Source of the DNA: a virus
Strand: one strand, 5' to 3'
IMG/VR virus record: IMGVR_UViG_3300000116_000109
Location: 2,660-31,681 of that record
DNA length: 29,022 nt
Shown one piece after another: positions 1 to 27,214 of this stretch; positions within the stretch are counted from its first letter, which is position 1, and each line of letters begins with the position of its first letter. Position numbers and translations under genes: made by a program. The notes beneath the pieces are model-generated. The model was not told the DNA's origin, ran no database searches, and worked only from the letters and a program-made list of their open reading frames with translations.

Positions 1-150
1 TATAAGTTGAATTTTTCCTTGATGCAGTACCATAAATATTCATTAACTGAGATTGAAAATCTTATTCCTTGGGAACGAGACATTTATGTTGAGCTATTGA
101 GAGCGCATTTAGAAGAAGAGAAACTTAAGCAACAGCAAAATGGGTCCTGA
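1..150 (+). CDS. 3' end of small baseplate hub/assembly protein, T4 gp26/gp51-like (5' truncated)
   Basis: The window opens inside a reading frame that ends at TGA 148-150, so only the last 49 codons are visible. The fragment contains a helical segment with the motif ENLIPWERDIYVELL and a charged, glutamine-rich tail. A PWER-I-Y-V motif close to the C terminus is typical of small myovirus baseplate or tail-assembly proteins in the T4 gp26/gp51 group. The next gene starts inside its last codons (11-base overlap), which suggests translational coupling. The family call rests on this short motif plus position before hub genes, so the exact T4 equivalent is uncertain. Confidence 0.55.
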   Translation, partial: YKLNFSLMQYHKYSLTEIENLIPWERDIYVELLRAHLEEEKLKQQQNGS

Positions 151-2128: not shown

Positions 2129-4630
2129 ATGGTAGTAAGTTCTCAAAAGTTTTTACCATCAGGAAAGTCAGGTTCTTTAGCGGTAAGGCCCACTGCTAAA
2201 CTTTCAATGATTCGCAAACCTTTGGTTGCGACATCTTCTGATGGTGAAGCACAAAAAACTGTACTTGATGTTCGTAATAAAGTCACTTCCCTTACATTTA
2301 TTTTTAAAAGAAAGAAAATTTTAAAGAAAAAAATTCTTGATAGAAAGAGAAAGTTAGTAGAGACAGAAAAGAATAAAAAAAGAGAAGAAGAATTAGAATC
2401 CAAAAGAAAAAAAGGTGGAAAGAAAGATGATGAAAAATTATTAATAACACCTCCAGGCGGAAACATTATTGATTCTCTTACAAGATTTGCTGGGTTTACT
2501 TTACTTGGGTTTATAGTTGATAAGTATTCGAAATTTTTTCCAAAGTTGATAGAGTTTGGAAAAACCATACAACCTGCAATAGAAATTTTTAGTAGTTTTG
2601 CTAAAAATCTTGTTGGTGGTACGATTGATTTTATTGAGAATGGATATAAAGCATATGATAAAGTTCGTGCTGGAATCAAAAATATTGGTGGTGAAGGAGC
2701 ACAAAAAACTTTTGATGAGTTTTCTAAAAATTTAAATTTAATTTTGAATGGTGCCATCATGGCATCAATGTTGATTGCAAGTACTGCTCCTGGAAAAAAA
2801 TCTGGAGGAGTGTCTCGCGGTGGTGGGTATGGTGCTGGTTATGCTGCTGGATATGCTGCTGGACTTGCGTCTAGAGGTAGAGGTCCTAGATATCGTTCTC
2901 CCGGACAAGCAGCAGCAGGTGGCACTTTCCAGGAAAATCTATCAAGACAAGCACTCTCCAGAGAAAGAATGCTTGCTGATGCTGGCCCTAGAGGACCATT
3001 AGATAGAATGCGTCGTGGTTTTAGAGGAGCTGGCGCACAACTTCAAACTGGAACATTGTTCCAGAGAGGTTCTGGTTTACAAAAAGCACTTTATAATGCT
3101 CCAGGAAAATTAAAAGGTGTAACTTCAAGCCTTGGTAAAGTTGGCAGTGTTGGTGGTAGAATTTTTGGTAGAATACCCATCATTGGTGGACTAATTGATT
3201 TTGCAATCAATCTTGCGATGGGTGAAGATCCTGGAAGAGCAGCAGCAAAAGCAGTAGGTGCTACTGTTGGTTCTGCACTTGGAACTTTTATTCCAGTTCC
3301 TTTTGCCGGTACTATTCTTGGTGGTATTCTTGGTGACATTGTTGGCGGAGCAATGTATGATACTTTGGTTGGGAGTAAAATCAAACCTCAAGCAAAGGCA
3401 CAAGGAGGAACAGTAACATCTGGACAATCCAGAGTTTCTCCTACAAGAAGAATTAAAAAAACTAAAACAAAACAAAGAAAAGTTTATGTTCCACAAAAAA
3501 CACAACCTGGAAAAGATTTTGGTGGAAAACTGAAGATAGAACAACTGTATGGTGAAGATAAACCAGGAGAGAAGAGTGCATTGAGAGCTCTTAAAAAGAG
3601 CTCTGAAGATTTGAAAAAAATGAAATCAATGCACGGCATAGTTGGTGGAATTCTAGGTGCTGGTATTGACATGGCACTCGGACAGAAACCAGATAAAAAA
3701 CTTGCAAATTCTCTTGGAAGTATGTTTGGTTCTGTTATTGAAGCATCAGTTAATGCGGAACTAAATTCTTCATTTAATGATATTTCAAAGGCAATTGCTA
3801 TGGCAAGTGGTGGAGTAGTTCCATCAAGAGAGATTGGTGCTAGAATGAGTGTCGGTGAAAGGATTGGTAAGTATATTTCTAATGCTTTTTCAATCGCACT
3901 TGAAAGTTCTGCTACTAGAGTATTGCAAAACTTAAATCAAGAAGTGAATCGTGAAGGTGGCTCCACCCTCGATGGAGACGGTGGAGCCCCCCGGCGCGGT
4001 GGCGGAGGATCAAAAGGATTGTGGCAGGGCGAAGCTGCTAGTATTCCACCAGAGGGGAAAGCTCTATTAGATGCTATTGCTGGTTCAGAATCTAGTGGTT
4101 ATAATTCCAGGTATCCATCCAAAGCATTTAGTGGATATGATGATCACCCAAGAATTGATGAACGTATTTTAAGCGGTCCAAACAAAGGACTTACAAGTAA
4201 TGCTGCTGGTAGATATCAATTCTTATCTACAACTTGGGATCAGTACAAAAGACCTGGTGCTAAGTTTACACCAGAAGAACAAGATATTGCAGCGTATAGA
4301 TTAGCAATTGCTGCTTATGGATATGGTGAGCAAGGACTTCTGAAAGCACTTAGAGAAGATCCTACAAAAGTTGCCAATAAGTTGAGTAAAACTTGGACAT
4401 CTTTGCCCGGTGGTATAGAACCAAATAATGCTACAGGGGGATTCTTGTCTAGATTTAATACAAAAGTAAAAGAATATAAACTCGAACCTGCTAAACCAGC
4501 AGCTGCTAAACCAGAACCAGTAAAAGGCCAAAAAGTGTCTTATAATGGTTTGAATCAACAAACTTCTTATGAATTAGCAATTCATGAGAGGAATGTTTTC
4601 CTCTATCAACAAGAAACAGTTCTTGCTTAA
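2129..4630 (+). CDS. baseplate hub/tail protein with C-terminal GH104-type murein lytic transglycosylase domain
   Basis: This 833-aa protein has a good ribosome-binding site (AGGAG just before ATG 2129). Order: a basic coiled coil (about residues 55-110), a hydrophobic block opening FAGFTLLGFIVDKYSKFF (about 130-180) shared with the preceding gene, Gly/Ala-rich helical regions (about 210-430), an Arg/Gly-rich linker (about 610-630), and a lysozyme-like domain (about 640-790). The domain resembles lambda endolysin R: SESSGYNSRYP, then DDHPRI, then NAAGRYQFLSTTWDQYK, then WTSLPGG, matching R's SEG...YSDHPRK...AGRYQLLSRWWDAY...WASLPG. Glu654 in the SES motif aligns with the catalytic Glu of R. 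It probably cuts peptidoglycan locally during tail penetration, a job done in T4 by gp5 lysozyme, which is a different fold class. The hydrophobic N-terminal part could also be tape-measure-like. Confidence 0.82.
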   Translation: MVVSSQKFLPSGKSGSLAVRPTAKLSMIRKPLVATSSDGEAQKTVLDVRNKVTSLTFIFKRKKILKKKILDRKRKLVETEKNKKREEELESKRKKGGKKDDEKLLITPPGGNIIDSLTRFAGFTLLGFIVDKYSKFFPKLIEFGKTIQPAIEIFSSFAKNLVGGTIDFIENGYKAYDKVRAGIKNIGGEGAQKTFDEFSKNLNLILNGAIMASMLIASTAPGKKSGGVSRGGGYGAGYAAGYAAGLASRGRGPRYRSPGQAAAGGTFQENLSRQALSRERMLADAGPRGPLDRMRRGFRGAGAQLQTGTLFQRGSGLQKALYNAPGKLKGVTSSLGKVGSVGGRIFGRIPIIGGLIDFAINLAMGEDPGRAAAKAVGATVGSALGTFIPVPFAGTILGGILGDIVGGAMYDTLVGSKIKPQAKAQGGTVTSGQSRVSPTRRIKKTKTKQRKVYVPQKTQPGKDFGGKLKIEQLYGEDKPGEKSALRALKKSSEDLKKMKSMHGIVGGILGAGIDMALGQKPDKKLANSLGSMFGSVIEASVNAELNSSFNDISKAIAMASGGVVPSREIGARMSVGERIGKYISNAFSIALESSATRVLQNLNQEVNREGGSTLDGDGGAPRRGGGGSKGLWQGEAASIPPEGKALLDAIAGSESSGYNSRYPSKAFSGYDDHPRIDERILSGPNKGLTSNAAGRYQFLSTTWDQYKRPGAKFTPEEQDIAAYRLAIAAYGYGEQGLLKALREDPTKVANKLSKTWTSLPGGIEPNNATGGFLSRFNTKVKEYKLEPAKPAAAKPEPVKGQKVSYNGLNQQTSYELAIHERNVFLYQQETVLA
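3959..3988. repeat. GC-rich perfect inverted repeat in the domain linker
   Basis: GGCTCCACC (3959-3967) and GGTGGAGCC (3980-3988) are perfect 9-bp arms around a 12-nt loop. They lie inside a visibly GC-rich stretch in an otherwise AT-rich gene, exactly where the encoded Gly/Arg-rich linker precedes the lysozyme-like domain. There is no T-tract, so it is not an intrinsic terminator. Confidence 0.75.
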
Positions 4631-4646
4631 ATAGTAATAAAAATAT

Positions 4647-6014
4647 ATGTCAAAGGACTCACTAACATTTAAAAAATTCGAAATCTATTCTAATGATGAT
4701 GAGTCTTCCTCTGTAGATTTAAGAGGAGGAACTCCTAGAATAGAGTATCGTGAGAGTGTTTTCTTGCCATATGTTGTAGTTGTTTGTAATATCGTTGATA
4801 CTGGCAATGCGGTGTTGGTTGATGATAGATACGTCAGTGTCCTTGAAGCAATCAAATGTCAAGGTGTAGAAAAGGTTGACTTTGCAATTGAAGATTCATT
4901 GGGTAATAAGATTAATCTGGATGGTGACGATTATCATTTAAGAGTAGCTGCAACGAGTGAGATTAGCACATCATTTAAAGCAACGACTTTTAAATTATCT
5001 CTTGTTTCTCCAGAAGCATTTGATAATTTAGTAATAGAAAATGAATGTAGAAATGCTTATGGTGGAAAGATATCTGACATAGTAAAATTAATTATTAAAA
5101 ATAATCTTAAGTCAACCAAAGAAACAACGAACTTTGATGTGACTCTTGATACTTTTAATCAACAAGGAAAGAGTAGAAAACCTTTTGATATGATTCTTGA
5201 TTTACAAAAGATATGTATTCCAGAGTCAGTTCAAACTGATAGTGGTAAAACTTCAAAGGGACACCTTGCTGGATACTTGTTCTGGCAAACCTCTGAGGGT
5301 TGGAACTTCAAATCTTTAGATAATCTCTTTAAGTTCAGTGGAAGTTATCTCAAGTATATTGACAATAGAGGTAGAGCAATAAAGAATTACATTGAAACTA
5401 AGAGAGCAGATAATAATATTCCTTCAGGATTCACTGATAAGATATTGCATTATCGTGTTCATAGAACCATTGATGCACTAAGACAATTTGAAACTGGTGC
5501 ATTCGGAACACTTCTGGAGACATGGGATCCTATCAATTGTAGTTATGATAAAACTAATTCTGTAATTACAACAGAAGAAGGAAATGGAATCCGAGCAGGA
5601 AAAAATCTCCCAAACTTCGGAAAGTATGCTGGGAAAGCAACAAAAAGAATTGCAAACAAATCTAAAGCAAAGGGGCAAACTGTTGTTTATGGTGATAATA
5701 TAGAACAGCAAGTTGAAAAAACTGACAAAGAAAATTATTCTGTAGATGATGTTACACAACAAGCACTACAGAACTACAAACAAAAAATGAATATGTCCGC
5801 TGAGATTGTTATTCCTGCTGACTTTAGTTTACATGCAGGAGATTTAATATACTGCGAATTCCAGGAACTATCCTCTGGAAAAACGATTCTCTCAAGTAAC
5901 AATCGTGATAGCGGTATATATATGATAGCAGATCTTTGTCATTTCGGTAATCGTTCAAAGACGTTTACAGGGCTTCACTTAGTCAGAGATTCTTATGGAG
6001 TAAAAAATGGATAA
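4647..6014 (+). CDS. baseplate hub subunit, T4 gp27-like
   Basis: This 455-aa protein lacks a clear Shine-Dalgarno sequence before ATG 4647. It is beta-rich with no membrane segment. Features include RIEYRESVFLPYVVVV near the N terminus, a helix AYGGKISDIVKLIIKNNL (about residues 138-155), and a C-terminal barrel-like segment with GDLIYCEF, then GIYMIADLCHF and LHLVRDSYG. The organisation, a protein set against a following spike-type gene and ending with a strand pair carrying a 'D-L-Y/F...Y-M-I-D/A...H-L' pattern, recalls T4 gp27 and other control-protein-D hub proteins that form the trimeric torus on which the spike sits. Sequence similarity is remote and judged by eye. Its position right after the tail lysozyme supports a hub role. 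Confidence 0.6.
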   Translation: MSKDSLTFKKFEIYSNDDESSSVDLRGGTPRIEYRESVFLPYVVVVCNIVDTGNAVLVDDRYVSVLEAIKCQGVEKVDFAIEDSLGNKINLDGDDYHLRVAATSEISTSFKATTFKLSLVSPEAFDNLVIENECRNAYGGKISDIVKLIIKNNLKSTKETTNFDVTLDTFNQQGKSRKPFDMILDLQKICIPESVQTDSGKTSKGHLAGYLFWQTSEGWNFKSLDNLFKFSGSYLKYIDNRGRAIKNYIETKRADNNIPSGFTDKILHYRVHRTIDALRQFETGAFGTLLETWDPINCSYDKTNSVITTEEGNGIRAGKNLPNFGKYAGKATKRIANKSKAKGQTVVYGDNIEQQVEKTDKENYSVDDVTQQALQNYKQKMNMSAEIVIPADFSLHAGDLIYCEFQELSSGKTILSSNNRDSGIYMIADLCHFGNRSKTFTGLHLVRDSYGVKNG

Positions 6015-6219
6015 CATCGAACAACACATTCAAAAAGATAAAGAGATTCTGGATAACCCAACAATCTCTCCACAAATGCGTCGCCATACTGAAGAAGAGT
6101 TGGCAGACTTAAAAGCATATGCAGAACGTCACCCAGAAGATCATCACGATCCCACACCACTAGAACTCTATTGCGATACTCATCCTGATGCATCTGAGTG
6201 CAGAGTATACGAGGACTGA
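6007..6219 (+). CDS. CP12-like small protein (C-terminal GAPDH-binding motif only)
   Basis: This 70-aa acidic protein starts 8 bases inside the preceding gene. Residues 52-70 read LELYCDTHPDASECRVYED, which closely matches the C-terminal end of cyanobacterial CP12 (consensus YC..NP...ECR-Y-D/E-D). Cys56 and Cys65 have the canonical 8-residue spacing with the central proline. In cyanobacteria CP12 links GAPDH and phosphoribulokinase and shuts the Calvin cycle; the C-terminal pair binds GAPDH and the N-terminal Cys pair mediates the PRK side. Here the N-terminal 50 residues are a helical, Cys-free segment, so only half of the redox switch is present. Phage-encoded CP12 is an established cyanophage auxiliary metabolic theme, but sitting between hub genes it could equally have a structural role. 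Confidence 0.72.
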   Translation: MDNIEQHIQKDKEILDNPTISPQMRRHTEEELADLKAYAERHPEDHHDPTPLELYCDTHPDASECRVYED

Positions 6220-6226
6220 TTAACTG

Positions 6227-9085
6227 ATGGGAAAAATTATTGCCCAGATTGTAGACAGAAGTCGTGATAAAACCATTAAACCTGTCAAAGGGTTTAGTGG
6301 TGTTGAGACGATTCGGACTGTCTACGAACGTTATAAAATCTGGATACCAAGCCAGATGGATGCCAACATTCCAGTTGAACAGTTGGAGTGGGCAAGAAAG
6401 AAAACCATGAATTCTGGACATGGAGGAATCGAATCCTTTGAATCAATAATTCAGACAGGTTCTTTTGTTGTAATTGAGGAAGATGATAACGGTGACTGGG
6501 TAATTGATGAAGTATTGCCAAACGTTGTTTGTGATGAGATTTCTTCGGAATTTGTTTTTGGAAAAGCATCAAGCGGTTTCTCTCCAACATATTATCAAGG
6601 ACTCCAAAAAGTCCCAACTACAGCTCAAACACCCGATGGTGGTGGTTTAGTTTGTGAACTACCTCAAACTCCACAAGCGTCACTGGAAGACGAGAAGCAG
6701 CAAAAGCATAACAAAACTGAAACAATATACACTGCATGTAAGAAAGTTGATTTTGATGCTGCCAATGAAGAAATCGAAAAACTTATCAAGGATGTTGAGG
6801 ACTTAAGAACAGGACTTCTTGGAGAAGATAGTTTTTTAGCGACAAGTCAAGAATTTGTTAATCAGGTTCAGGATAAAGTTAATTCAGCATCAGCAAAGAT
6901 TGCAGAACTGACTGCTGATTTGGTGCAAGAAATAAGAAAATATGTACTTAGAAAAGTCAATGCAGGTATCAATGACTTAACTGGAAATGCACCATTAAGT
7001 ACCAGATATATTGTAAACGAAGCAAAGGATAAAGGACTTAGCACTCTATCTTGTCTCTTCGCAAAAATATTAGCAAATCTTGAGAATTTAATTTATGACC
7101 TACTGAGTCAATTGATTGATTATGTTCTTAATACCTCAACGTGTTTAATTGAGAATTTTATTTCTAATTTTATTGGACAAATAGTTGCTCAGTTAACAGA
7201 ATTAATTAATATAATATTAGAACCAATATCAAGTCTTCTTGGTTCTGTAATTAGTTTCACTAGTGAAATCTTAGATTTTGTTATTTCAATTCTTGACTTT
7301 CTATTATGTAAAGAAGAAAATCTTTGCCCTCAAATTGAGAAATATAATCCTCTTGATGGCCCTGTAGTGTCAGGTGGTTCTCTTACTTTAGATATTAATT
7401 CAATATTTGAAAGTGCCAAAGGAGTAGCAGATAGTTTCCAAGGTATTATTGATATACCAGAGAACATAGAAGATTATGAGTTTGTCTTTGATGCACAAGC
7501 AGCACTTGACGCAACATTAGATTCTTGTAATGTTGGATTTGAAGAGTGTGGTGTTCCTAGTGTAGTATTCTGGGGTGGCTCTGGTTCTGGTGCAACGGGC
7601 AATGCAGTAGTCAATGCTGTTGGTGATATTATTGGTGTTGATTTAGTACTGCCTGGGGATTATGAACAAGCACCTATTATTGACTTTGAGGATAACTGTG
7701 GAAATGGAGTAGGTGCTGAAGCTATTCCTGTTCTTGGTGAGGTTACGGTAGAGACTGGAATAGGCACCGATGGAACTGGAATTGTTGTTGATGTTGTTGA
7801 TGTTGATGATGTTGGAGTAGGAACTGGAACCACTACAACTACAGGTATTACTGGTGTTGTAATAACGAATCCTGGATATGGATATCTTCCCTCTCCAAAT
7901 GGTTCAAAGGGAGGAATGGGTAGAGTATGGGCAGATAGATGTCAAACTGTAGTAAGAAGAGCTAATAGAAGTTGGGATGCACCATATAGTGAAGGTAATA
8001 TTATTCGACTGTATTATGGAGATAGAATAACATTACCTGGGCAAAGTGAAGTTGTAATTGACTGTGACTTCAACGCTATAGAACTTCCTGGATGTATAGA
8101 AACTGGGGAGAAATATTGTTATAAAGATATGCGTGGTTTTGATGATGGTTCATCTGGAACGTCTTTGGAGAACTTCAACATTAAGAGCATGGTTGGATTT
8201 GATGATATCAGAGGTTCAAATCCAAGAGTTACTCCACCAATTTCTATTGAGCACCAAAATCTTGTAAAGCAACTCAGCGAAACAGAAAGAGGAAGAGAAT
8301 TATTTGAGGAAGAAAGAAAACTTGTAGAGTCTGGTGCTGTTACTGATTTTGGCCGTCCAGATCAGTTTGGATTTACTAATGACTATCCTTATGCAAGAGA
8401 ACTTGGATTTAGTGATAGTGATATTAGATATTATCTTGAAGGTTTCTACTCTAAGATTCTTGGCAAGAGACTTGGCCCTTTGATGAAACTAAAGTTGGAA
8501 GATCCAAACTTTGGCCCTTTACCAAAGGCACTGAGAGGTGGTGGAACTTCTGGTATATTTGATTGTGAAACAGATTATCCTTATGCACTTTCATTGGGAT
8601 TCAATGATAAAGACATTCGTTATTATCTTGAAAATGTTTATCGTGGAAAGATAGATGAATGTATGCAGAGAAAATTAAATGATGCAAACTTTGGTAGAGT
8701 TGATTATTATGTTGAACTGACTGCTCCTGGATGTCCCCCAGATCAACTGGTTGGTGACTATGAAGTTATCAGTGAAATTGGTGACGTTTATATTGATGAT
8801 GGTGGATTTGGATATCAACCAGGAGATACTGCAACAGTATTAGATTGCTCTGGCAATCCTGATGCTTCTGCTAAGGTTGAAATAACTGTCGATCAACGTG
8901 GAGTTATTACTAATGCAAAAGTGATTAATCCTGGAGCAAATTACACATGTATTCCTGAAATTATCATAAATACTGACACAGGATACAATGCAAGATTAAT
9001 TCCTGTTCTCAAATTTACGAGAGCGGAAGATGTTCCTCCTGGCACACAAGTTCTCCAAGTCATTGATTGTGTAGGTAGAGTATAA
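6227..9085 (+). CDS. large baseplate hub structural protein with hydrophobic helical region and internal repeats
   Basis: This 952-aa protein follows the CP12-like gene by 7 bases. The N terminus (about 1-110) is beta-rich with SFVVIEEDDNGDWVIDEV, which could be an OB-like or gp5-N-like domain. Residues about 185-265 are amphipathic helices, followed by about 100 residues of strongly hydrophobic helix (about 270-365, Leu/Ile/Phe-rich with scattered Cys). Later parts hold beta repeats of the type VITNPGYGYLP (about 545-560) and VYIDDGGFGYQPGD plus VINPGANYTC near the C terminus, and two copies of a DYPYA..LGF.D.DIRYYLE unit (from residues 719 and 783). Cyanophage hub regions commonly carry such a giant protein. 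Its precise baseplate position cannot be read from sequence. TAATG overlap couples it to the spike gene. Confidence 0.7.
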   Translation: MGKIIAQIVDRSRDKTIKPVKGFSGVETIRTVYERYKIWIPSQMDANIPVEQLEWARKKTMNSGHGGIESFESIIQTGSFVVIEEDDNGDWVIDEVLPNVVCDEISSEFVFGKASSGFSPTYYQGLQKVPTTAQTPDGGGLVCELPQTPQASLEDEKQQKHNKTETIYTACKKVDFDAANEEIEKLIKDVEDLRTGLLGEDSFLATSQEFVNQVQDKVNSASAKIAELTADLVQEIRKYVLRKVNAGINDLTGNAPLSTRYIVNEAKDKGLSTLSCLFAKILANLENLIYDLLSQLIDYVLNTSTCLIENFISNFIGQIVAQLTELINIILEPISSLLGSVISFTSEILDFVISILDFLLCKEENLCPQIEKYNPLDGPVVSGGSLTLDINSIFESAKGVADSFQGIIDIPENIEDYEFVFDAQAALDATLDSCNVGFEECGVPSVVFWGGSGSGATGNAVVNAVGDIIGVDLVLPGDYEQAPIIDFEDNCGNGVGAEAIPVLGEVTVETGIGTDGTGIVVDVVDVDDVGVGTGTTTTTGITGVVITNPGYGYLPSPNGSKGGMGRVWADRCQTVVRRANRSWDAPYSEGNIIRLYYGDRITLPGQSEVVIDCDFNAIELPGCIETGEKYCYKDMRGFDDGSSGTSLENFNIKSMVGFDDIRGSNPRVTPPISIEHQNLVKQLSETERGRELFEEERKLVESGAVTDFGRPDQFGFTNDYPYARELGFSDSDIRYYLEGFYSKILGKRLGPLMKLKLEDPNFGPLPKALRGGGTSGIFDCETDYPYALSLGFNDKDIRYYLENVYRGKIDECMQRKLNDANFGRVDYYVELTAPGCPPDQLVGDYEVISEIGDVYIDDGGFGYQPGDTATVLDCSGNPDASAKVEITVDQRGVITNAKVINPGANYTCIPEIIINTDTGYNARLIPVLKFTRAEDVPPGTQVLQVIDCVGRV
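8381..8695 (+). repeat. two-copy protein repeat (DYPYA/DIRYYLE) within the 952-aa hub protein
   Basis: Copy 1 is encoded at 8381-8515 and copy 2 at 8573-8695, offset 192 bases (64 codons). Both start DYPYA, continue LGF-(S/N)-D-x-DIRYYLE, and end (D/A)NFG. Copy 2 is four residues shorter. A small helical duplicated module. Confidence 0.8.
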
Positions 9086-9760: not shown

Positions 9761-10774
9761 ATGGAAGTAACTGATATTCACGTAGGTAAACAACTACAAG
9801 TAAATTATAGTGTTCAGGGACTAACACCGAATCCTCCTCTTGTATATGGATTTGGACCAACTGCTGTTCCTGGCACTGGATTTTTTAATGGTGGTATACT
9901 GGTTGGAAGTCCATTATCTTACCCAATACCTAATGTTCCAGAAGCAACCTTGATGGTTGGAAGAGCAGAACCAGTTTCAAATCCACTTGCTTCTGTTGCA
10001 CCATCTATTTTTAAAGTTACTTCAAGAGCTTCCATAACTCCAGTAGGAACTCCAATTGATGTAATGTTGGGAGATCCTACTGGCCCTGTTGGAGTTACTT
10101 GTTTTTGTGGCATTCAACCATTTACTGTCCAATCTGGATCTATTAATTTAGTTACTCTTGCTTCCTATAGTTTAGTTTCTCCTTTTAGAAATGAGGTTGG
10201 AGCTTCAGAAGACATAGGAGCAAAAGTTTTTGGTGGTTCGAAAGCAGAATTGGGAGTTGATTCAAACTTATCCCTTGCATATAACTCCGCACCTATAATC
10301 GGAAATGCTCCACTTGACGTGCCAGATTATAAGTCATCAGTTACTACGTTAAATGCAACATATTTCTTAGCAAAAAGTAAAAAATCATTTGATATTCCCC
10401 ACCCAACTAAAGAGAATCATAGACTTCGTTACATTTGCTTAGAAGGGCCTGGTGCAGAAGTTTATTTCCGTGGAAAATTAGAGGATACTAATGTAATAGA
10501 AGTACCTGATTATTGGACAGGTTTGGTAGATGCAGAAACAATTACAGTAAATTTAACTCCGATTGGATGTTATCAAGAATTATTTGTTGAAAAAATTGAG
10601 TGGGGAAGTAGAATTATAATCAAAAATAATGCTGGTGGGCCAATCAAATGCCATTACACTGTATATGGAGAAAGAAAAGATGTTGAAAAGAACATTCCTG
10701 AATATGAGGGATTGACACCAGAGGATTATCCAGGAGATAATAGTAACTATGTGATTAATGGGGGTATAAAATAA
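9761..10774 (+). CDS. virion structural protein with C-terminal beta domain shared with the 87-aa gene
   Basis: This 337-aa protein starts one base after the spike stop. The N-terminal half (about 1-160) is rich in Gly, Pro and hydrophobic strands (GTGFFNGGILVGSPLSYPIP; GPVGVTCFCGIQP). Residues about 205-310 form a separate domain: KSFDIPHP, then HRLRYICLEGPGAEVYFRGK, then YWTGLVD, then ITVNLTPIGC, then PIKCHYTVYGER. The second part of that domain, with the almost identical ITVNLTPIG, is found again in the 87-aa gene at 12182. This 'HPxKxxxRLRYxCLEGPExxVYxRG' pattern is common at the ends of phage fibre or wedge proteins. It is likely a baseplate or fibre-attachment component. The exact assignment is unknown. 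Confidence 0.65.
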   Translation: MEVTDIHVGKQLQVNYSVQGLTPNPPLVYGFGPTAVPGTGFFNGGILVGSPLSYPIPNVPEATLMVGRAEPVSNPLASVAPSIFKVTSRASITPVGTPIDVMLGDPTGPVGVTCFCGIQPFTVQSGSINLVTLASYSLVSPFRNEVGASEDIGAKVFGGSKAELGVDSNLSLAYNSAPIIGNAPLDVPDYKSSVTTLNATYFLAKSKKSFDIPHPTKENHRLRYICLEGPGAEVYFRGKLEDTNVIEVPDYWTGLVDAETITVNLTPIGCYQELFVEKIEWGSRIIIKNNAGGPIKCHYTVYGERKDVEKNIPEYEGLTPEDYPGDNSNYVINGGIK

Positions 10775-12181: not shown

Positions 12182-12445
12182 ATGAAAGACTATCAATTTA
12201 TTAAATCAAATAAGGAGTATGCTCTACTTTCTGGCAGAGCTAAAAGTACAGTCATTAAACTTCCTGAAGAGTGGGAAGAATTTGTTGACTTGTCTAAAAT
12301 TACAGTAAACTTAACTCCAATTGGAGCAAATCAAAATCTTATTGTAAAAAGGACACAGGGACGTGAGGTGCATCTGCAAACGAACGGGTTGCCCGTGGAC
12401 TGCTACTACATGATTATGGGTGAGGTGCTTGACAAGGACGCTTGA
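12182..12445 (+). CDS. small structural protein homologous to the C-terminal domain of the 337-aa protein
   Basis: This 87-aa protein starts five bases after the previous stop. It contains VIKLPEEWEEFVDLSKITVNL and ends with a strand pattern (PVDCYYMIMGEV) that aligns with residues about 240-310 of the protein at 9761 (VIEVPDYW...ITVNLTPIG...IKCHYTVYGE). The DNA around the shared motif is also close (25 of 27 bases match between 10541-10567 and 12299-12325, counted by eye), suggesting a duplication. It is a stand-alone copy of a beta domain and may cap or decorate the same structure. Its last third is clearly GC-richer than neighbouring DNA and holds the -35 box of the promoter at 12429. Confidence 0.68.
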   Translation: MKDYQFIKSNKEYALLSGRAKSTVIKLPEEWEEFVDLSKITVNLTPIGANQNLIVKRTQGREVHLQTNGLPVDCYYMIMGEVLDKDA

Positions 12446-16196: not shown

Positions 16197-19100
16197 ATGC
16201 CTCTCAGTCGTTTAGATAATTTCCTTAAAAATGCCCGTGGTAACATTTTATATGTAAACCCAAATGATTTAGACGCTACAGATAGTATTGAAAACCAGGG
16301 TAACTCTCTTGCTCGCCCATTTAAAACTATTCAGAGAGCACTCATTGAGGCATCCAGATTTTCATATCAGAGTGGATTAGATAATGATCGATTTGCAAAG
16401 ACAACCATTCTCTTGTATCCTGGAGAGCACCTTGTCGATAACCGTCCTGGATGGATTCCTGATGGTGAAGGTAATTTCAAATTAAGAAATGGTACGTCAT
16501 CTAGTAATTATGAGGCATGGTCTCTCACGACTAACTTTGATTTAACCACTGCTGATAATGCACTCTATAAGCTTAATAGTGTACATGGTGGTGTTATTCT
16601 ACCAAGAGGAACTTCAATTGTTGGTTTAGATCTTCGTAAAACAAAGATTCGTCCAAAATATGTTCCCGATCCAGCAAATGATAATATTGAATCATCTGCT
16701 GTTTTTAGATTAACTGGTGCTTGCTACCTTTGGCAGTTCAGTGTCTTCGATGGCAATCCTAACGGAAACGTATATAAAGATTATACAGAAAATATTTTTG
16801 TTCCAAATTTTTCACACAACAAGCTGACAGTATTTGAATATGCTGATGGCGTAAATGATGTCAAGATTAATGACAGTTTCATTAGTGATTTTGATGCCGC
16901 TAGAACTGATCTTGATATGTACTATGAGAAGGTTGGACTTGCATATGGTTCATCTTCTGGTAGACAAATTGAACCAAACTATCCATCAAGCGGACTTGAC
17001 ATTCAACCTAAGGTTGATGAATATCGTATTGTAGGACCTACTGGTGGACTTGTTGGTATCAGCAGTATTAAAGCAGGTGATGGCGTAACTCCTTCAGATA
17101 CAATCACAGTAACTTTAGAAGAAGCACTACCCGGACTTTCTGTCGATACTCCATTCCAAGTTTCTGGAATTACTGCTACTGGATATAGTGGACAATTTGT
17201 TGTAAGTGATGTAATTACAACTTCTGTTGATGGAACTAGTGTATTTAAATATAAAGTATCAAATCCACCAACAGATCCATTACCAACAGTTACTGGTTCT
17301 AGCATCAATCTTCAGACAGATACTGTTACTTCAGCATCTCCATATGTCTTTAATGTCTCTCTGAGATCTGTCTATGGTATGTGCGGTATGCACGCCGATG
17401 GCAGTAAAGCATCTGGATTTAAATCAATGGTTGTGGCTCAGTTCACAGGCATTGGACTTCAAAAAGATAAGAATGCTTTCGTTAAGTATAACGAAACGAG
17501 TGGAGAATATAAAGATAGCACATTTGCTGGTAATGAAAACATCAATACCGATTCCCGTGCAGTTTTCAAACCTTCATATAAAAACTTCCACATTAAAGCA
17601 TCAAATAATTCGTTTATTCAGATTGTATCTTGCTTTGCTATTGGGTATTCCGAGCACTTTATAGTTGAAAGTGGTGGAGATTTGTCTGTCACAAACTCTA
17701 ACTCTAACTTTGGCGCAAAGGCTATTGTATCTGATGGATTTAGAGAAGATTCATTTGCCAGAGATGATGTTGGTTATATTACTCATATCATTCCACCAAA
17801 AGAGTTGGAGACAACTGATGTTGCAATTGAATTCAATGCTCTTGACGTTTACCAAACTATTGTTGGCGTTGCATCCACAAGTCGCCTTTATCTTTACAAT
17901 CAGACAAACCAAGATGTTCTTCCTGACAGTGTAATTGAAGGATATAGAGTTGGAGCAAAAGAGAATGACAATCTAAATGTTCTAATCTCTCAAGGTGGTG
18001 TTACTCAGCAATATTCTGCAAGAATTGTAATGCCAGATTCTGAGTTGATGACAACTCAGAGTACATATAGAAAAGTATTTACAGTCGGTAGAAATTCTGG
18101 AATCAATAGTATTACTGCTAATACATTAACATTAACTGAAGATCATAACTTCAAGAGTGGAGAAACTATCCGTGTTTTATCTGAGGATGGACATCTTCCT
18201 GACGGTATTGATGAAAATATTGTTTACTTTGCAATTTCTGATGGTTTAAATCCAAATCAGATTCAAATTGCACAAACACTTAATGATGCTATTAATGGTG
18301 ATGATATTACTGTTAATAACAAAGGCGGAATTCTTAGAGTTGAAAGTAGAGTAAGTGATAAGATTTCTGGTGATATCGGGCACCCAATTCAATATGATGT
18401 TGATGCTGGACAATGGTACATTACTGTAGGAACAGCAGCAACAGACAATAGCATTTATTCAACTATTGTAGGACTTGGAACCACTTCTCTTGGCGATGCA
18501 ACACCAAGAACATTTATTAATCGTAAACCAGACACAAGAAGTGTAATTGATACTTCATATCGTATTCGTTATGTAATTCCTTCCGGTTCTGGTATTACAA
18601 CTGCTCGCCCACCAATTGATGGATATATTATTCAAGAGTCAAGTAGTGTAAATGGAGCATCAAATACAGAAGTTGCAAAATACTATAGTCCAACTGAAGT
18701 TTCTCTTTCCAACTTAGGTGAGTATAGAAACTTTAGTTTCCTTGCAAATGCACATTGGACTAGCAATACTGCATACTTCTTATCAGAACTACCTCACGAT
18801 TTAAAAATTGGCTCTCAAGTTTTGATTGAAAATGTAAAGAGTACAAATAATCCAGTTGGTACTGCAAACTCTGGATTTAATGGAACATATAATGTTACTG
18901 GTATCAGTAGTGCAAGAGAATTTACTGTCTCTCTTAATAGTATTTCTGGCCCTGGCGCATTTACAAACGACACTGATTCTAGAACCACTAGTCTCCCAAC
19001 CTTTACTCAGAAGAGATATTCTGGAACTTATATCGTCTATAGATCTCAGGAAGTTCAAGAGTACATTGCAGGATTACAAGATGGCATCTATCACTTATTT

Positions 19101-22058
19101 GTAACTAATGCTTCAAATACTCCATCTGTAACACCATTCTCTACTGAAAGATATTCTCAACCAATCCAAAATCTCTATGCTCAAACAAATAGAGATAATC
19201 CAGTATCAGATCCAAAACCAACAAAATCATTTGCTGTTCCATCTCCTATTGGAAAGGTTGTTGTTGATAACCCTCAAAACAGTGTTACTAGAGAGACTAT
19301 TGAGAAATCTCTGTTTGATTTTAACGTTGGTTTTGGAATTACTGCAATCACATCAAACAGCACAGGAACAGCACATACGTTCTACACAACTATTGATCAT
19401 GGGTTGAATAGAGTTGTTAGTGTTGGAATTGCTGACAGTGGTGTTGCATATGGAAATAGTAGTGCTGGATATCTTTATAATGCTAGATTAGTTTCTGCTG
19501 GTGCAGCAACTACTCAGGGACAATATGCTACTGCAAGACTTACTATTAACGGTACAGGTAATATTACTGCCGTCAAGATTATGGATGGTGGTAGTGCATA
19601 CAGCGTTGGCGACTCCCTTCAAGTCGTTGGCACTGCCACAACAACTGGACACAGCGTTGGTATTGTAACAGTTACTGAGATTTATAATAACATTGGTGAT
19701 ACTTTAAGCGTTGCTGGTGTTATTCCACACACCAATAACGATTTTAATTCTCTCTATAGAATCACTGGAATTGCAACAGATTCAGCAAAAGAAATTACAG
19801 TTTCTTCTGCATCAACAATCGGCGCAGCAACAACTCTTGGAGTAGGAATTACTAATCTTGCGAGTGCATCAGTAACTCTGACTGGACAATCTTTAGATGT
19901 AACTGGGTTTACCTACAATGCAATAACTGGTGTTGGTGTTGTCACAACATCCCAAAGACATGGATTGCATGTTGACAAAAAGATTAAATTAGGTGGTGCT
20001 GATAATCCTCTTTATAGAGGAGACTTTATTGTCAAGAAAATCAATAGTCTCAATTCATTTGATGTTAACATTGGATTAGGTACAGTAACTCCATCTACAT
20101 CTGGAACAATTAAGGTATATCAGTACGGTTATTCTTCTTCAGGTGGTAATGTTTCATTAGAAAATGAAAATATTGGCGGAAGACAGAACATAGAATATGC
20201 AGGTATTACTACAACATTATCTGCAACAGTTGCTACTGCTACTACTCCAAATATTGAAATTGCTGATATTGAAAAACTTGATATTAATATTGGCGATTAC
20301 TTATTAATTGAAGAAGAACTTGTAAGAGTAAAAACCACAGTTTCATCAAACCCCGTTAAAGTATTCAGAGGAGTACTTGGAACTAAGGCAAGTACTCACC
20401 TATCAAATACTGTTGTAAAAAGAGTCCATTGTCGTCCTATTGAGTTTAGAAGAAACTCTATCATTCGTGCTTCTGGACACACCTTTGAATATGTTGGTTT
20501 CGGTCCTGGTAATTACTCAACTGCTTTCCCAGACAAACAAGATCGCAGTCTTTCTTCTCAAGAAGAACTCTTAGCACAATCAACTAAGAGAGATGGTGGA
20601 ATCAATGTCTACACAGGCATGAACGATCAGGGAGACTTCTATGTTGGTAATAAGAGAGTAAGTTCTGCTACTGGACAAGAAGAAGTATTTGATTCTCCTG
20701 TTCCTACTGTTACTGGAGAAGACATTAATCCAGGTAGATTTAGTGTTGGATTCGATGTTCTTACTCCACTTGAAGCAACAATCAGTCGCTCTATCAAGGT
20801 TGAAGGTGGTGCAGACGGTAACATCCTTTCAGAATTTGACGGTCCTGTTGTATTCAACAACAAACTGACTTCAACATCAACCAAAGGTATTGAGGCATCA
20901 TCAATATTCCTGCAAGGTGATGCAACTGTTTCTAGAAAGTATACTGTTGGAATCTCTACTCCTTCACTTGCAGGAAACCCAGGAGACATTACATATAATG
21001 CTAATCCAGAAAAAGGCGGTTATCTTGGATGGATTTATACAACAGATAATGACTGGTATCGCTTTGGTGCTGTAAGTTATGAGCAAAACTTGAATGTTGC
21101 TATCTTCGATAAGGTTGGCATTGCAACAAACTCACCTGGACTGAATACACTTCAGGTTGGTTCTGGTTCTTCTATCTTTGCTGTTGATGGCACTGGTGTT
21201 GGCATCGGAACAACTGCAAATGGTTACGCACTTCATGTTATTGGTTCCACAAACATTGTTGGAACTGTAACTGCAACATCATTTGTTGGTGATGGTGCTG
21301 GATTAACAAATCTTGCAAACGACAGTCTCTGGGCTGGAACATCTGCAGGTGTTGGAACAGGTATCTATCCAATCAATCTTTCAAGAGTTGGTGTAGGAAC
21401 ATCTGTTCCCCATTACAACCTCGACGTTGGAACCACTGGAACTGGTACAACTGACTTAAAAGTTAGAAATAACTCAATCTTCGATGGCAACATCAATGCT
21501 CAAGATATCCTGGTTGGTAGTGCAATTACTGCAACGGCATATAGACTTGACAGTTCTTCAAGCAACATTCGCGCAGGTATTGTAACTGCAACAACGCTGG
21601 TTGTTGGAACTGCTGTTTCAACGTCTGGTTCTAATGTTGGATTCGGAACTGCAACTCCAAGAGCAAAAGCAGACTTTGAAGGTTCTGTTAAGTTCAAGAC
21701 ATATTCTGAATACGTTGAAGCACTTGATATCTCAGGTGGTAATGTAAACGTTGATTTATCAGTTGCACAGACATTCACATTGACAGTCGATTCTCCAGTT
21801 TCTCAGTTTACATTATTAAATCCACCATCTGGTTCGACTGCATTTACAATTAAGATTACTCAGAATTCTACTGGATATTCTGTTGGCATAGATACATTTA
21901 AGAATAGTGGTGGAACTACAATTCCAGTTTATTGGCCTGGCGGTGGAGTCTTACCTGTTGTTACTACAACTGCAAATAAGACAGACATCTACTCGTTCAA
22001 GACATTTGATGGCGGTTCATCACTTTACGGTGTAGTTGGAGGACAAAACTTCGCATGA
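16197..22058 (+). CDS. giant virion structural protein, tail fibre/baseplate-associated (1953 aa)
   Basis: The N terminus, MPLSRLDNFLKNARGNILYV, continues with a beta-helix-like region (LARPFKTIQRALIEASRFSY; ILLYPGEH) resembling the start of pectate-lyase-like solenoids. The middle is a series of beta-rich Ig-like or 'GSGYxxGDxLxV' repeats (VKIMDGGSAYSVGDSLQVVG). Residues about 1420-1510 contain a segment typical of cyanophage virion proteins (IIRASGHTFEYVGFGPGNYS; then KRDGGINVYTGMNDQGDFYV). The C-terminal 280 residues carry fibre repeats of the VTATSFVGDGAGLTNLA type and a terminal beta domain (residues about 1840-1953). It probably forms a long trimeric fibre or wedge extension. The stop overlaps the next start (ATGA). 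Confidence 0.75.
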   Translation: MPLSRLDNFLKNARGNILYVNPNDLDATDSIENQGNSLARPFKTIQRALIEASRFSYQSGLDNDRFAKTTILLYPGEHLVDNRPGWIPDGEGNFKLRNGTSSSNYEAWSLTTNFDLTTADNALYKLNSVHGGVILPRGTSIVGLDLRKTKIRPKYVPDPANDNIESSAVFRLTGACYLWQFSVFDGNPNGNVYKDYTENIFVPNFSHNKLTVFEYADGVNDVKINDSFISDFDAARTDLDMYYEKVGLAYGSSSGRQIEPNYPSSGLDIQPKVDEYRIVGPTGGLVGISSIKAGDGVTPSDTITVTLEEALPGLSVDTPFQVSGITATGYSGQFVVSDVITTSVDGTSVFKYKVSNPPTDPLPTVTGSSINLQTDTVTSASPYVFNVSLRSVYGMCGMHADGSKASGFKSMVVAQFTGIGLQKDKNAFVKYNETSGEYKDSTFAGNENINTDSRAVFKPSYKNFHIKASNNSFIQIVSCFAIGYSEHFIVESGGDLSVTNSNSNFGAKAIVSDGFREDSFARDDVGYITHIIPPKELETTDVAIEFNALDVYQTIVGVASTSRLYLYNQTNQDVLPDSVIEGYRVGAKENDNLNVLISQGGVTQQYSARIVMPDSELMTTQSTYRKVFTVGRNSGINSITANTLTLTEDHNFKSGETIRVLSEDGHLPDGIDENIVYFAISDGLNPNQIQIAQTLNDAINGDDITVNNKGGILRVESRVSDKISGDIGHPIQYDVDAGQWYITVGTAATDNSIYSTIVGLGTTSLGDATPRTFINRKPDTRSVIDTSYRIRYVIPSGSGITTARPPIDGYIIQESSSVNGASNTEVAKYYSPTEVSLSNLGEYRNFSFLANAHWTSNTAYFLSELPHDLKIGSQVLIENVKSTNNPVGTANSGFNGTYNVTGISSAREFTVSLNSISGPGAFTNDTDSRTTSLPTFTQKRYSGTYIVYRSQEVQEYIAGLQDGIYHLFVTNASNTPSVTPFSTERYSQPIQNLYAQTNRDNPVSDPKPTKSFAVPSPIGKVVVDNPQNSVTRETIEKSLFDFNVGFGITAITSNSTGTAHTFYTTIDHGLNRVVSVGIADSGVAYGNSSAGYLYNARLVSAGAATTQGQYATARLTINGTGNITAVKIMDGGSAYSVGDSLQVVGTATTTGHSVGIVTVTEIYNNIGDTLSVAGVIPHTNNDFNSLYRITGIATDSAKEITVSSASTIGAATTLGVGITNLASASVTLTGQSLDVTGFTYNAITGVGVVTTSQRHGLHVDKKIKLGGADNPLYRGDFIVKKINSLNSFDVNIGLGTVTPSTSGTIKVYQYGYSSSGGNVSLENENIGGRQNIEYAGITTTLSATVATATTPNIEIADIEKLDINIGDYLLIEEELVRVKTTVSSNPVKVFRGVLGTKASTHLSNTVVKRVHCRPIEFRRNSIIRASGHTFEYVGFGPGNYSTAFPDKQDRSLSSQEELLAQSTKRDGGINVYTGMNDQGDFYVGNKRVSSATGQEEVFDSPVPTVTGEDINPGRFSVGFDVLTPLEATISRSIKVEGGADGNILSEFDGPVVFNNKLTSTSTKGIEASSIFLQGDATVSRKYTVGISTPSLAGNPGDITYNANPEKGGYLGWIYTTDNDWYRFGAVSYEQNLNVAIFDKVGIATNSPGLNTLQVGSGSSIFAVDGTGVGIGTTANGYALHVIGSTNIVGTVTATSFVGDGAGLTNLANDSLWAGTSAGVGTGIYPINLSRVGVGTSVPHYNLDVGTTGTGTTDLKVRNNSIFDGNINAQDILVGSAITATAYRLDSSSSNIRAGIVTATTLVVGTAVSTSGSNVGFGTATPRAKADFEGSVKFKTYSEYVEALDISGGNVNVDLSVAQTFTLTVDSPVSQFTLLNPPSGSTAFTIKITQNSTGYSVGIDTFKNSGGTTIPVYWPGGGVLPVVTTTANKTDIYSFKTFDGGSSLYGVVGGQNFA

Positions 22059-23725: not shown

Positions 23726-25174
23726 ATGGCTATCAATAAAAATTTTGTAGTCAAGAACGGATTAGAAGTAAGCACTAATCTTATTCTTGCAGATGCCATT
23801 ACTAATAAGGTAGGTATTGGTAGTACAATTCCATCCACTCAGTTAGATGTTATTGGTGGAATTGCATGTACTGACTTTAGAGCGGTTGGTGTTGCTACAA
23901 TTAAAACTTTAAAGGCAACAACTGGGATTGTCACCGATTTACTTGCAACTTATGGTACTGTTGGAATTGTAACTGCTGCTGCATTACAACCAACGCATGT
24001 AAATGTTTCTGGTGTACTAACTGCAGCAACTGCTCAGTTTGATGGAGTTACAACAATTGCTGTCGGTGTTGTCACATATCTGAGCGGAACGAATTTAAAT
24101 TATTCCGGTATCGGAACAATTCAAGATTCAGTTATTACTTCATTAAATGTAACTGGATTCTCAACTATTGCAGACTTAAATGTAACTGGGGTTGCAACTG
24201 TTGCTACGGTTGATATTAATGCGGGAGATATTGAAGTCACATCTGTAAGAACTTCAAACTTAAATGCAACTGGTGTTACTACCATTACATCACTCTCTGT
24301 TACTGGTTCAACATTTGAAAGATTAACTGTAAATAACTACAGCAATCTTGCTGGTGTTACTACAATTGATAATGCAACTGGAACTAATTTAAATTTCAGT
24401 GGTGTTGGCACAATAACAACAACTGAAGCAACCAGTGTACAATCAACAAATCTCAATGTAACTGGAGTTACAACTACCAATACATTTGAAGCATCAACTG
24501 CAGATATTGATATTCTCACTGTCAATAGCTATAGCAATCTTGCTGGTGTTACCACAATTGATAATGCAACTGGAACTAATCTAAATTTCAGTGGAATAGG
24601 TTCTGTTGGGGGAGTTTTATTCAGCAGTGGTATTATAACTTCTACAGCACTTGGAGCAGGAATTGTCACCTTCTATGGTGATGGAAGTCAATTACAATTC
24701 CTTCCATCAGCATCACCTGAAGGTTCTGATACTCAAGTACAGTTTAATGCTACCGGTGTTTTCTCTGGACATCCTGGATTTACATATAACTATGAAACCG
24801 TAGGTGCTACAAGTTTAAATGTTTCTACTGGTGCTACAATTGGAACAGACTTAATCGTCAGTAGAAATGTAAAAATTACTGGAGTTGCAACTGCACAAGA
24901 CTTCGATGCTCTTTCTGATGTCAACTTTAAAGAAAATATCAAAACCGTAGAAGGTGCATTAGATAAAGTAGAACAACTTCGTGGTGTAAGATTTAATTGG
25001 AAAGAATCTGGCAATCCATCTTATGGAGTTATTGCTCAAGAGTTGGAAGAAGTTCTTCCAGAATTGGTTCACGGAAGCGATCCTAGGACAGTTAATTACA
25101 ATGGAATTATTGGAGTATTGATTGAAGCAATTAAAGAACTCAAGAGTGAAATCAAAGATTTAAAGTCTCAATAA
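23726..25174 (+). CDS. tail fibre with C-terminal S74 intramolecular chaperone domain
   Basis: This 482-aa protein opens MAINKNFVVKNGLEVSTNLI, a common cyanophage fibre start, followed by many short beta repeats of the 'LNVTGVTT...' type with Val/Thr/Ser/Asn-rich composition. The final 86 residues match the endosialidase-type chaperone (S74 peptidase): LSDVNFKENIKTVEGALDKV, then LRGVRFNWKES, then YGVIAQELEEVLPELV, then a terminal coiled coil IEAIKELKSEIKDLKS. Ser397 and Lys402 sit at the usual Ser...Lys dyad positions, so self-cleavage just before Ser397 is expected after trimer folding. It is probably a trimeric host-recognition fibre. Confidence 0.88.
   Translation: MAINKNFVVKNGLEVSTNLILADAITNKVGIGSTIPSTQLDVIGGIACTDFRAVGVATIKTLKATTGIVTDLLATYGTVGIVTAAALQPTHVNVSGVLTAATAQFDGVTTIAVGVVTYLSGTNLNYSGIGTIQDSVITSLNVTGFSTIADLNVTGVATVATVDINAGDIEVTSVRTSNLNATGVTTITSLSVTGSTFERLTVNNYSNLAGVTTIDNATGTNLNFSGVGTITTTEATSVQSTNLNVTGVTTTNTFEASTADIDILTVNSYSNLAGVTTIDNATGTNLNFSGIGSVGGVLFSSGIITSTALGAGIVTFYGDGSQLQFLPSASPEGSDTQVQFNATGVFSGHPGFTYNYETVGATSLNVSTGATIGTDLIVSRNVKITGVATAQDFDALSDVNFKENIKTVEGALDKVEQLRGVRFNWKESGNPSYGVIAQELEEVLPELVHGSDPRTVNYNGIIGVLIEAIKELKSEIKDLKSQ
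24341..24598 (+). repeat. direct repeat (period 192 bp) within the S74 fibre gene
   Basis: Copies at 24341-24406 and 24533-24598 share almost all bases (AGCAATCTTGCTGGTGTTAC and onward), offset 192 bp or 64 codons. They encode SNLAGVTTIDNATGTNLNFS twice. The near-identity of DNA indicates recent duplication. Confidence 0.9.
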
Positions 25175-26760: not shown

Positions 26761-26976
26761 ATGTCTACTCTAAAAGTTGATAGATTAAGGAGTCTTACAG
26801 ATTCTGCCGTAGAATTTTCTAAAGGAGTTTCAGTAGCAACTGCATCAACCATAACTGGCAATATCAATTGTGGTGTATGTACTGCAGGTTACTTTTCTGG
26901 AAGTGGTTCTGGAATTACAAATATTCCCGGAGCAGCTGTCGGATTTGTGGTAGCACAAAACATTACATCGATTTAG
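26761..26976 (+). CDS. mini tail-fibre-like protein, tandem copy 1
   Basis: This 71-aa protein has a strong ribosome-binding site (AGGAG before ATG 26761). It opens STLKVDRLRSLTD and ends with CTAGYFSGSGSGITNIPG, corresponding to the 'ATAFxGDGSGLTNI' unit found in long fibre proteins. It is the first of three tandem paralogues (71, 75, 82 aa), each consisting of an N-terminal 'S-x-x-x-V-D/S-x-x-x-x' strand and one fibre repeat. It is probably a small virion or fibre component. The next gene starts 4 bases later. Confidence 0.6.
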   Translation: MSTLKVDRLRSLTDSAVEFSKGVSVATASTITGNINCGVCTAGYFSGSGSGITNIPGAAVGFVVAQNITSI

Positions 26977-26980
26977 AAAA

Positions 26981-27208: not shown

Positions 27209-27214
27209 AAAATC

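What the first reader, a model, noticed from the sequence alone, without database searches (positions are those of the whole stretch)
6007..6219. CP12-like gene with only the GAPDH-binding half, embedded in the baseplate hub operon
The C-terminal 19 residues nearly match cyanobacterial CP12 (Cys56/Cys65, central Pro, ECRVYED), but the N-terminal Cys pair is missing and replaced by a helical segment. It is coupled to hub genes rather than to metabolic genes. It could be a late-expressed or even virion-packaged CP12 mimic acting on GAPDH, or a structural protein that co-opted the motif.
Basis: partly seen in the sequence, partly recalled or inferred. Interest (0 to 1): 0.75.

Follow-up and report, generated by a model that had tools for sequence, protein, structure and literature searches.

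The report
Cyanophage CP12 gene in hub operon
This is a full-length copy of CP12, a small protein that many viruses of cyanobacteria carry and that is thought to switch off the host's carbon fixation; it sits among tail-baseplate genes and is probably made late in infection, but it is a known kind of gene rather than a new mimic or virion part.

Summary
The ORF at 6007-6219 (+, 70 aa) is real and is an ordinary cyanophage CP12. It matches Pfam CP12 over its whole length (E 5e-14, above cut-off); 425 phage records hold a match. "Only the GAPDH-binding half" is wrong: the N-terminal half aligns to host CP12. The missing N-terminal Cys pair is shared with all 19 full-length picocyanobacterial CP12s fetched. 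The C-terminal pair is kept in 80 of 80 and 79 of 79 environmental relatives examined.

The place between a tail protein and gp5 is confirmed; 10 of 14 named phages looked up have the tail protein directly upstream, and cp12 near gp5 was already published. Location changes often while the protein does not, which argues against a hub role. In S-SCSM1, gp5 and an upstream tail gene are noted as virion proteins, CP12 is not.

Possibly unreported: uncoupled cp12 genes carry a T4-type late-promoter element at a near-fixed distance (101 of 108 loci); tightly coupled ones like this have none (0 of 51) and probably ride the late hub operon. Late expression is likely, although P-HM2 cp12 was measured as middle.

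The parts
6007..6219 (+). cp12: 70-aa CP12-domain protein, C-terminal Cys56-Pro60-Cys65, no N-terminal Cys pair
6172..6219 (+). codons for residues Cys56 to Asp70 (plus stop): the conserved C-terminal Cys-x3-Pro-x4-Cys segment; [quoted passage not shown]
   Evidence: alignment to 3zdf/6gfo CP12 chains; conserved; binding domain as stated in PMC11257934
4647..6014 (+). upstream neighbour: tail protein (PHROG 350; counterpart of T4-GC15 in cyanophages), overlaps cp12 by 8 nt
6227..9085 (+). downstream neighbour: gp5-like baseplate hub subunit and tail lysozyme (PHROG 1922)
5997..6000 (+). GGAG, ribosome-binding-site-like, six bases before the cp12 ATG, inside the upstream gene
   Evidence: sequence; not tested for function
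32..38 (+). ATAAATA, T4-type late-promoter element 108 nt upstream of the first ORF of the run of same-strand genes that contains cp12; nearest exact match upstream of cp12
2129..4630 (+). tail-associated muramidase/endolysin-like gene of the same run of genes

Best explanation
The gene is a cyanophage cp12, an auxiliary metabolic gene of the picocyanobacterial 'C-only' CP12 form. When its C-terminal Cys pair is oxidised, the C-terminal segment is expected to bind and inhibit host Calvin-cycle GAPDH (Gap2) and so lower NADPH use by carbon fixation; carbon would then be turned towards the pentose phosphate pathway and nucleotide synthesis. [quoted passage not shown] In this phage the gene has no late-promoter element of its own and sits inside the hub operon by overlap, so it is probably transcribed late with the baseplate genes, as cytoplasmic cargo rather than a virion part. 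Shown here: family membership, conservation, location, location changes, promoter layout. From literature on other CP12s: GAPDH inhibition. Inferred: binding by this protein, timing, and benefit to the phage.
For: Pfam CP12 full length over cut-off; PHROG 627; 425 phage records with a match, many annotated CP12; PDB CP12-GAPDH chains by sequence and as the top two fold matches (weak, E 0.03). Two Cys and the central Pro in 80 of 80 relatives, two Cys in 79 of 79 examined of a second set. Host forms lack the N-terminal pair too. A Synechocystis strain whose CP12 lacks the N-terminal Cys grew like wild type in a test where one lacking the C-terminal Cys was strongly impaired (PMC11257934 section 21 read). 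Both halves are under purifying selection in the coupled class (dN/dS about 0.10 and 0.08). [quoted passage not shown] Late element: 0 of 51 coupled, 44 of 50 behind the tail gene with a gap, 57 of 58 elsewhere, against 139 of 614 other uncoupled ORFs.
Against: No binding or expression was measured for this protein. P-HM2 cp12, which also has ATAAATA at -31, was measured as a middle gene, so the element alone does not prove late timing; P-HM2 also has an overlapping TTGACA-17-TAGGAT. S-TIM5 and P-SSM2 cp12 lack the element at this place. A host-type promoter inside the upstream genes is not excluded; sigma-70-like matches in the first 13 kb are no more than in shuffles (47 against a mean of 41.7). 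The AWD core of canonical CP12 is absent.
Confidence: 0.88

Rival explanations
1. It is a structural or assembly component of the baseplate hub that happens to keep a CP12-like motif.
For: Tight overlap with the tail gene and 7 nt from gp5; the tail protein lies directly upstream of cp12 in 10 of 14 named phages looked up.
Against: P-HM2 has the tail gene abutting gp5 with nothing between and cp12 beside talC; S-TIM5 and S-SRM01 keep cp12 away from hub genes. Location changes 19 times on the best tree of 121 rows while the protein stays alignable (tree poorly resolved).
Confidence: 0.03
2. It is packaged in the virion and injected to act on GAPDH at once.
For: Late co-expression with hub genes would allow it; other regulatory proteins are detected in cyanophage virions.
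Against: Not named among detected proteins in the text or tables I read for S-SZBM1 (30 detected; Table 1 itself not in the section), S-CREM2 (52 detected, Table 3 read) and S-SCSM1 (45 detected; passages only; record notes). S-SM1: 41 proteins detected but its Table S8 was not readable. Small proteins can be missed.
Confidence: 0.04
3. A middle-expressed cp12 driven by a host-type promoter hidden in the upstream gene, in line with the middle timing measured for P-HM2.
For: AMGs including cp12 were all in the middle cluster in P-HM2.
Against: No enriched sigma-70-like sites; the P-HM2 gene sits elsewhere with its own TTGACA-17-TAGGAT, whereas the window gene overlaps the hub gene.
Confidence: 0.25

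Closest known systems
Cyanophage CP12 (T4-GC337; Sullivan et al. 2010 PMC3037559; Thompson et al. 2011, recalled and as cited in papers read)
   Same: Same family and size (213-285 nt genes in the table of PMC3037559), C-terminal Cys pair, no N-terminal pair, and 'near gp5' as one of its published places.
   Different: Here directly coupled on both sides (8-nt overlap, 7-nt gap) with no cpeT or tRNA cargo; a comparably tight layout is seen in S-T4, DSL-LC03 and S-SCSM1.
Synechococcus phages S-RSM4, S-WAM2, S-SCSM1, S-T4, DSL-LC03 hub loci
   Same: tail protein - cp12 - gp5 (or equivalent) order.
   Different: S-RSM4 keeps CTAAATA at -29 in a 21-nt gap; the window has neither gap nor element.
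Picocyanobacterial host CP12 (probably CP12-C(M) of the Figure 1 legend in PMC3906501; my equating is inference)
   Same: Full-length alignable, 44-56% identical for the 19 full-length cyanobacterial loci, no N-terminal Cys pair.
   Different: Two residues longer between the helices; host and phage forms are separate groups on the tree (100/100; 10 host rows).
Canonical CP12-N/C (T. elongatus 6gfo, Arabidopsis 6kez; organisms recalled)
   Same: C-terminal segment and overall helical layout.
   Different: No N-terminal Cys pair and no AWD core.

Membership tests
CP12 domain family (PF02672) | Score over the curated Pfam cut-off across the profile | tested here: met
   53.2 bits against 22.7, profile 3-70 of 70
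CP12 domain family (PF02672) | C-terminal Cys pair with central Pro (CxxxPxxxxC) | tested here: met
   Cys56-Pro60-Cys65; 80 of 80 relatives
CP12 domain family (PF02672) | CP12 fold: N-terminal helical hairpin, C-terminal helix | tested here: inconclusive
   Model pLDDT 93.4 with helices 4-16, 22-41, 51-58; top fold matches are CP12 chains 6ghl_F and 6gfo_F but only at E 0.03 and TM 0.36-0.40
CP12 domain family (PF02672) | Binds and inhibits photosynthetic GAPDH | not testable with these tools
   No binding or activity data for this protein
Canonical CP12-N/C | N-terminal Cys pair | tested here: not met
   Only two Cys in the protein; so it is not filed as CP12-N/C
Canonical CP12-N/C | AWD_VEE core | tested here: not met
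   RRHTEEEL where the 6gfo chain has AWDALEEL in the alignment
Cyanophage/picocyanobacterial C-only CP12 | C-terminal pair present, N-terminal pair absent, full-length alignable to host form | tested here: met
   19 of 19 full-length host loci and the phage set share it
Virion structural protein | Present in purified virions | not testable with these tools
   Literature only: not named in what I read of three virion proteomes of CP12-encoding phages
T4-type late gene | NATAAATA-type element upstream, or membership of a late operon | tested here: inconclusive
   No element at cp12 itself; nearest exact match at 32-38, start of the same run of genes; transcription not measured

The most novel reading that the evidence does not exclude
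Cyanophage cp12 is a late or late-sustained gene in most lineages. Wherever it lands, it either brings a T4-type late element at -22 to -43 of its start (mostly -26 to -35) or is fused into the late hub operon and lacks that element. The phage would thus clamp the Calvin cycle during virion assembly, not only during DNA replication as the 'middle AMG' picture from P-HM2 implies; the junction before gp5 would be a landing place that gives late timing.
Probability: 0.5. Interest if true: 0.5.

Novelty: new member of a known kind. Interest (0 to 1): 0.3.

Why it matters
It removes a proposed oddity (half-CP12 mimic in a baseplate) and replaces it with a testable point about timing. In P-HM2 the metabolic genes were all middle genes, thought to feed DNA replication. 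The layout here, seen as an own late-type element in 101 of 108 uncoupled loci and as fusion to the hub operon in 51 coupled ones, suggests that Calvin-cycle shutdown is tied to late transcription. If so, carbon fixation in infected cells would be suppressed through assembly, which bears on the carbon budget of infected picocyanobacteria.

Tried and rejected
Half-protein idea: rejected by the full-length profile match and host alignment. Chance motif: rejected. Structural co-option: judged unlikely from P-HM2's empty junction and from location changes. Sigma-70 promoter scan gave nothing above shuffles. ATAAATA is not enriched by number in the window (6 matches against 11.2 expected on both strands); only its placement is unusual: 6 of 8 [AC]TAAATA matches lie 20-45 nt upstream of an ORF start (the ORF list is mine). 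The zero in the coupled class is partly mechanical, since the element would have to lie inside a coding sequence: other coupled ORFs show 15 of 618. P-HM2 control: element at 11 of 37 structural, 0 of 13 replication and 3 of 12 metabolic genes (cp12, psbA, nrdC) in the stretches fetched; the sorting of genes into classes is mine from the annotation.

First hub counts by tblastn with one query were lower bounds (30 of 65 loci with both flanks had the tail gene upstream); one search used four queries. The tree rests on 75 columns, and its bootstrap had not settled. In one search six contigs with 400 nt or less upstream were still labelled 'elsewhere'; they were dropped, as was L111, a duplicate of S-SM1. 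Loci with under 120 nt upstream (L035, L036, L051, L147) were left out. P-SSM2 (divergent CP12, no element near the start) was not in the table; S-SZBM1, S-SCSM1, S-RIM8 and S-WAM2 were looked up later and are not in it either. Host loci were found with phage-derived patterns, which favours the C-only form.

Papers not held: Thompson 2011, Stanley 2013, Doron 2016 on Syn9 and P-TIM40 transcription, Puxty 2016 (the titles behind the last two identifiers are recalled, Puxty also from a reference list). Doron 2016 may already give the class of cp12 in Syn9, whose cp12 has CTAAATA at -33.

Full report
WHAT IS THERE. The ORF at 6007-6219 (+) encodes 70 residues ending PLELYCDTHPDASECRVYED. It overlaps the end of the upstream gene 4647-6014 by 8 nt and ends 7 nt before gene 6227-9085. 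The neighbours are a tail protein (PHROG 350, E 3.5e-52) and a gp5-like hub subunit and tail lysozyme (PHROG 1922, E 5e-47); a muramidase-like gene precedes them. The window is part of a 31,681-base virus record with one CP12 match.

WHAT IT IS. Pfam CP12 matches residues 2-69 on profile positions 3-70 of 70, 53.2 bits, cut-off 22.7, E 5.2e-14. PHROG 627, without a named function, matches at 1.7e-33. tblastn finds matches in 425 of 50,697 phage records, nearly all cyanophages; a few records of Salmonella and Listeria phages appear at the loose E limit of 10. Solved CP12 chains match by sequence: 6gfo 1.8e-5, plus 3zdf, 6kez, 3qv1, 2lj9. AlphaFold2 gives pLDDT 93.4, pTM 0.77, helices 4-16, 22-41, 51-58. 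The two best Foldseek matches are CP12 chains 6ghl_F and 6gfo_F (GAPDH with full-length CP12), but weakly (E 0.03, TM 0.36-0.40, rmsd above 10 A; none of 53 at or below 0.001), which could mean that the hinge between hairpin and C-terminus differs (the hinge reading is inference).

THE 'MISSING HALF'. All 80 relatives kept from a first viral scan carry exactly two Cys at the C-terminal places and the central Pro, in 51 distinct peptides. In a second scan aimed at the marine form, 79 of 79 examined have two Cys (one of the 80 not examined). The 19 full-length Synechococcus and Prochlorococcus CP12s fetched from genomes also lack the N-terminal pair and align along their whole length; they were found with phage-derived patterns. 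A review states that the marine picoplanktonic group lacks the classical form and that cyanophages are exceptions too (PMC3906501, passages). S. elongatus PCC 7942 CP12 lacks the pair yet forms the ternary complex (PMC9406205, passages). In Synechocystis, a variant without the N-terminal Cys grew like wild type while a variant without the C-terminal Cys was strongly impaired (PMC11257934, section 21 read). So the Cys pattern is shared with the hosts and compatible with GAPDH control. In the coupled class both halves are under purifying selection (mean dN/dS 0.10 over 51 pairs and 0.08 over 55; dS near saturation, pairs not independent).

WHERE IT SITS. Of 14 named phages whose cp12 context I looked up (my choice, not a random sample), 10 have the tail protein immediately upstream: S-T4, S-SM1, DSL-LC03, syn9, S-RSM4, P-TIM40, S-SZBM1, S-SCSM1, S-RIM8, S-WAM2 (in S-T4 and S-SZBM1 that gene is annotated hypothetical; for S-T4 it groups with the others by sequence, for S-SZBM1 the reading rests on gene order). 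S-SRM01, S-TIM5, P-HM2 and P-SSM2 do not. In S-T4, DSL-LC03, S-RSM4, S-SCSM1 and S-WAM2 gp5 or its equivalent follows directly (S-T4's is annotated hypothetical and is placed by similarity); in S-SM1, syn9, S-RIM8, S-SZBM1 and P-TIM40 further cargo lies between (cpeT in all five; tRNAs in S-SM1, syn9 and S-RIM8; a 2OG-Fe(II) oxygenase in S-SZBM1; ndhI and speD in P-TIM40). In P-HM2 the same tail gene ends where gp5 begins (14775) with nothing between, and cp12 lies beside talC. The junction is thus an optional cargo site. Sullivan et al. 2010 already noted cp12 at variable places including near gp5, and a hot-spot near gp5 with tRNAs (PMC3037559, passages). On a tree of 121 rows the label hub/elsewhere changes 19 times; with separate labels, well-supported branches alone force at least 12 or 13 changes for each (before six short contigs were dropped). 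The tree has few columns and is rough.

VIRION OR NOT. The neighbours are virion proteins in relatives: gp5 and T4-GC15 were detected in S-SM1 virions (PMC3037559 section 26 read). The S-SCSM1 record marks the gp5 product and the tape-measure gene two genes upstream of cp12 as 'virion protein', but neither CP12 nor the tail protein between them. S-CREM2 Table 3 (52 proteins, read in full) lists no CP12 although the genome carries cp12; where that cp12 sits I did not look up. The S-SZBM1 text names detected head and tail proteins including its gp5 (_61), one enzyme and five unknowns, and does not name CP12 (_64); Table 1 was not in the section. For S-SCSM1 I read passages only. This is evidence against packaging, limited by detection of small proteins.

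TIMING. A late promoter NATAAATA is published for S-PM2 and other cyanophages (PMC2984593, passages). In the window [AC]TAAATA occurs 8 times, all on the + strand, 6 of 8 at 20-45 nt before an ORF start (binomial 8e-9 against a zone of 2.6% of the window), although the number of ATAAATA is not above chance. None lies at cp12; the nearest exact match upstream is at 32-38, before the first ORF of the run of genes that contains cp12, and a TTAAATA lies 19 nt before the tail gene. Across 166 of 170 loci with at least 120 nt upstream, and after dropping six short contigs and one duplicate, the element at -18 to -45 is found in 0 of 51 tightly coupled cp12s, 44 of 50 behind the tail gene with a gap of 18 nt or more, and 57 of 58 elsewhere. 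Other uncoupled ORFs in the same loci have it in 139 of 614, other coupled ones in 15 of 618. With phylogenetic pairing, in 12 independent pairs differing in coupling, the element goes the opposite way in 11.7 on average (sign test median p 0.0005). In P-HM2 the element marks 11 of 37 structural and 0 of 13 replication genes, plus cp12, psbA and nrdC among 12 metabolic ones.

Against a simple late reading: P-HM2 cp12 was measured as middle and highly expressed (PMC5082946, passages and section 15). Its upstream region holds ATAAATA at -31 overlapped by TTGACA-17-TAGGAT. A dual middle-plus-late promoter there, and late only in the coupled genes, would fit both facts; this is inference. My searches (listings, with passages or sections of the papers named here) showed me no paper that describes this pattern; the Syn9 transcription paper most likely to bear on it is not held.

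MECHANISM AND VERDICT. Most likely the protein inhibits host Gap2 through its oxidised C-terminal segment, shifting carbon to the pentose phosphate pathway, as proposed for cyanophage CP12 in general (Thompson et al. 2011, recalled and as cited in PMC3906501 and PMC5082946). [quoted passage not shown] this is a correlation only. The finding is a new member of a known kind. What may be new is the consistent link between cp12 and late-type transcription.

Noticed in passing
L094 and L104 (same MAG isolate label, ERR598943_bin.25): Two clearly different CP12-like proteins (ECRVYDD type, and a type with EEFLKAL and ECLVYDD) appear in contigs of one Synechococcus assembly; the second type also occurs in L105, L106, L108, L109. 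A host paralogue may exist.
   Followed up: partly
L088, L089, L090: Contigs labelled Euryarchaeota and Rhodopirellula MAGs carry phage-type CP12 (56-59% identical to the query, 75 aa); probably mis-binned cyanophage DNA.
   Followed up: no
window 26761-27463: Three successive small ORFs (71, 75, 82 aa) look like tandem paralogues with a shared GDGSxxTNI-like stretch, also seen in larger ORFs of the window (16197-22058, 23726-25174).
   Followed up: no
window 9761-10774 and 12182-12445: The two ORFs match the same PHROGs (17490 and 28536), so the shorter may be a partial duplicate of the longer.
   Followed up: no
P-HM2 record NC_015284, upstream of psbA (171763): ATAAATA at -44 of psbA, apparently the only other metabolic gene besides cp12 with an intergenic late-type element in the P-HM2 stretches examined.
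   Followed up: no
window 23726-25174: C-terminal sequence resembles a peptidase S74-type intramolecular chaperone domain (recalled from sequence, not tested).
   Followed up: no
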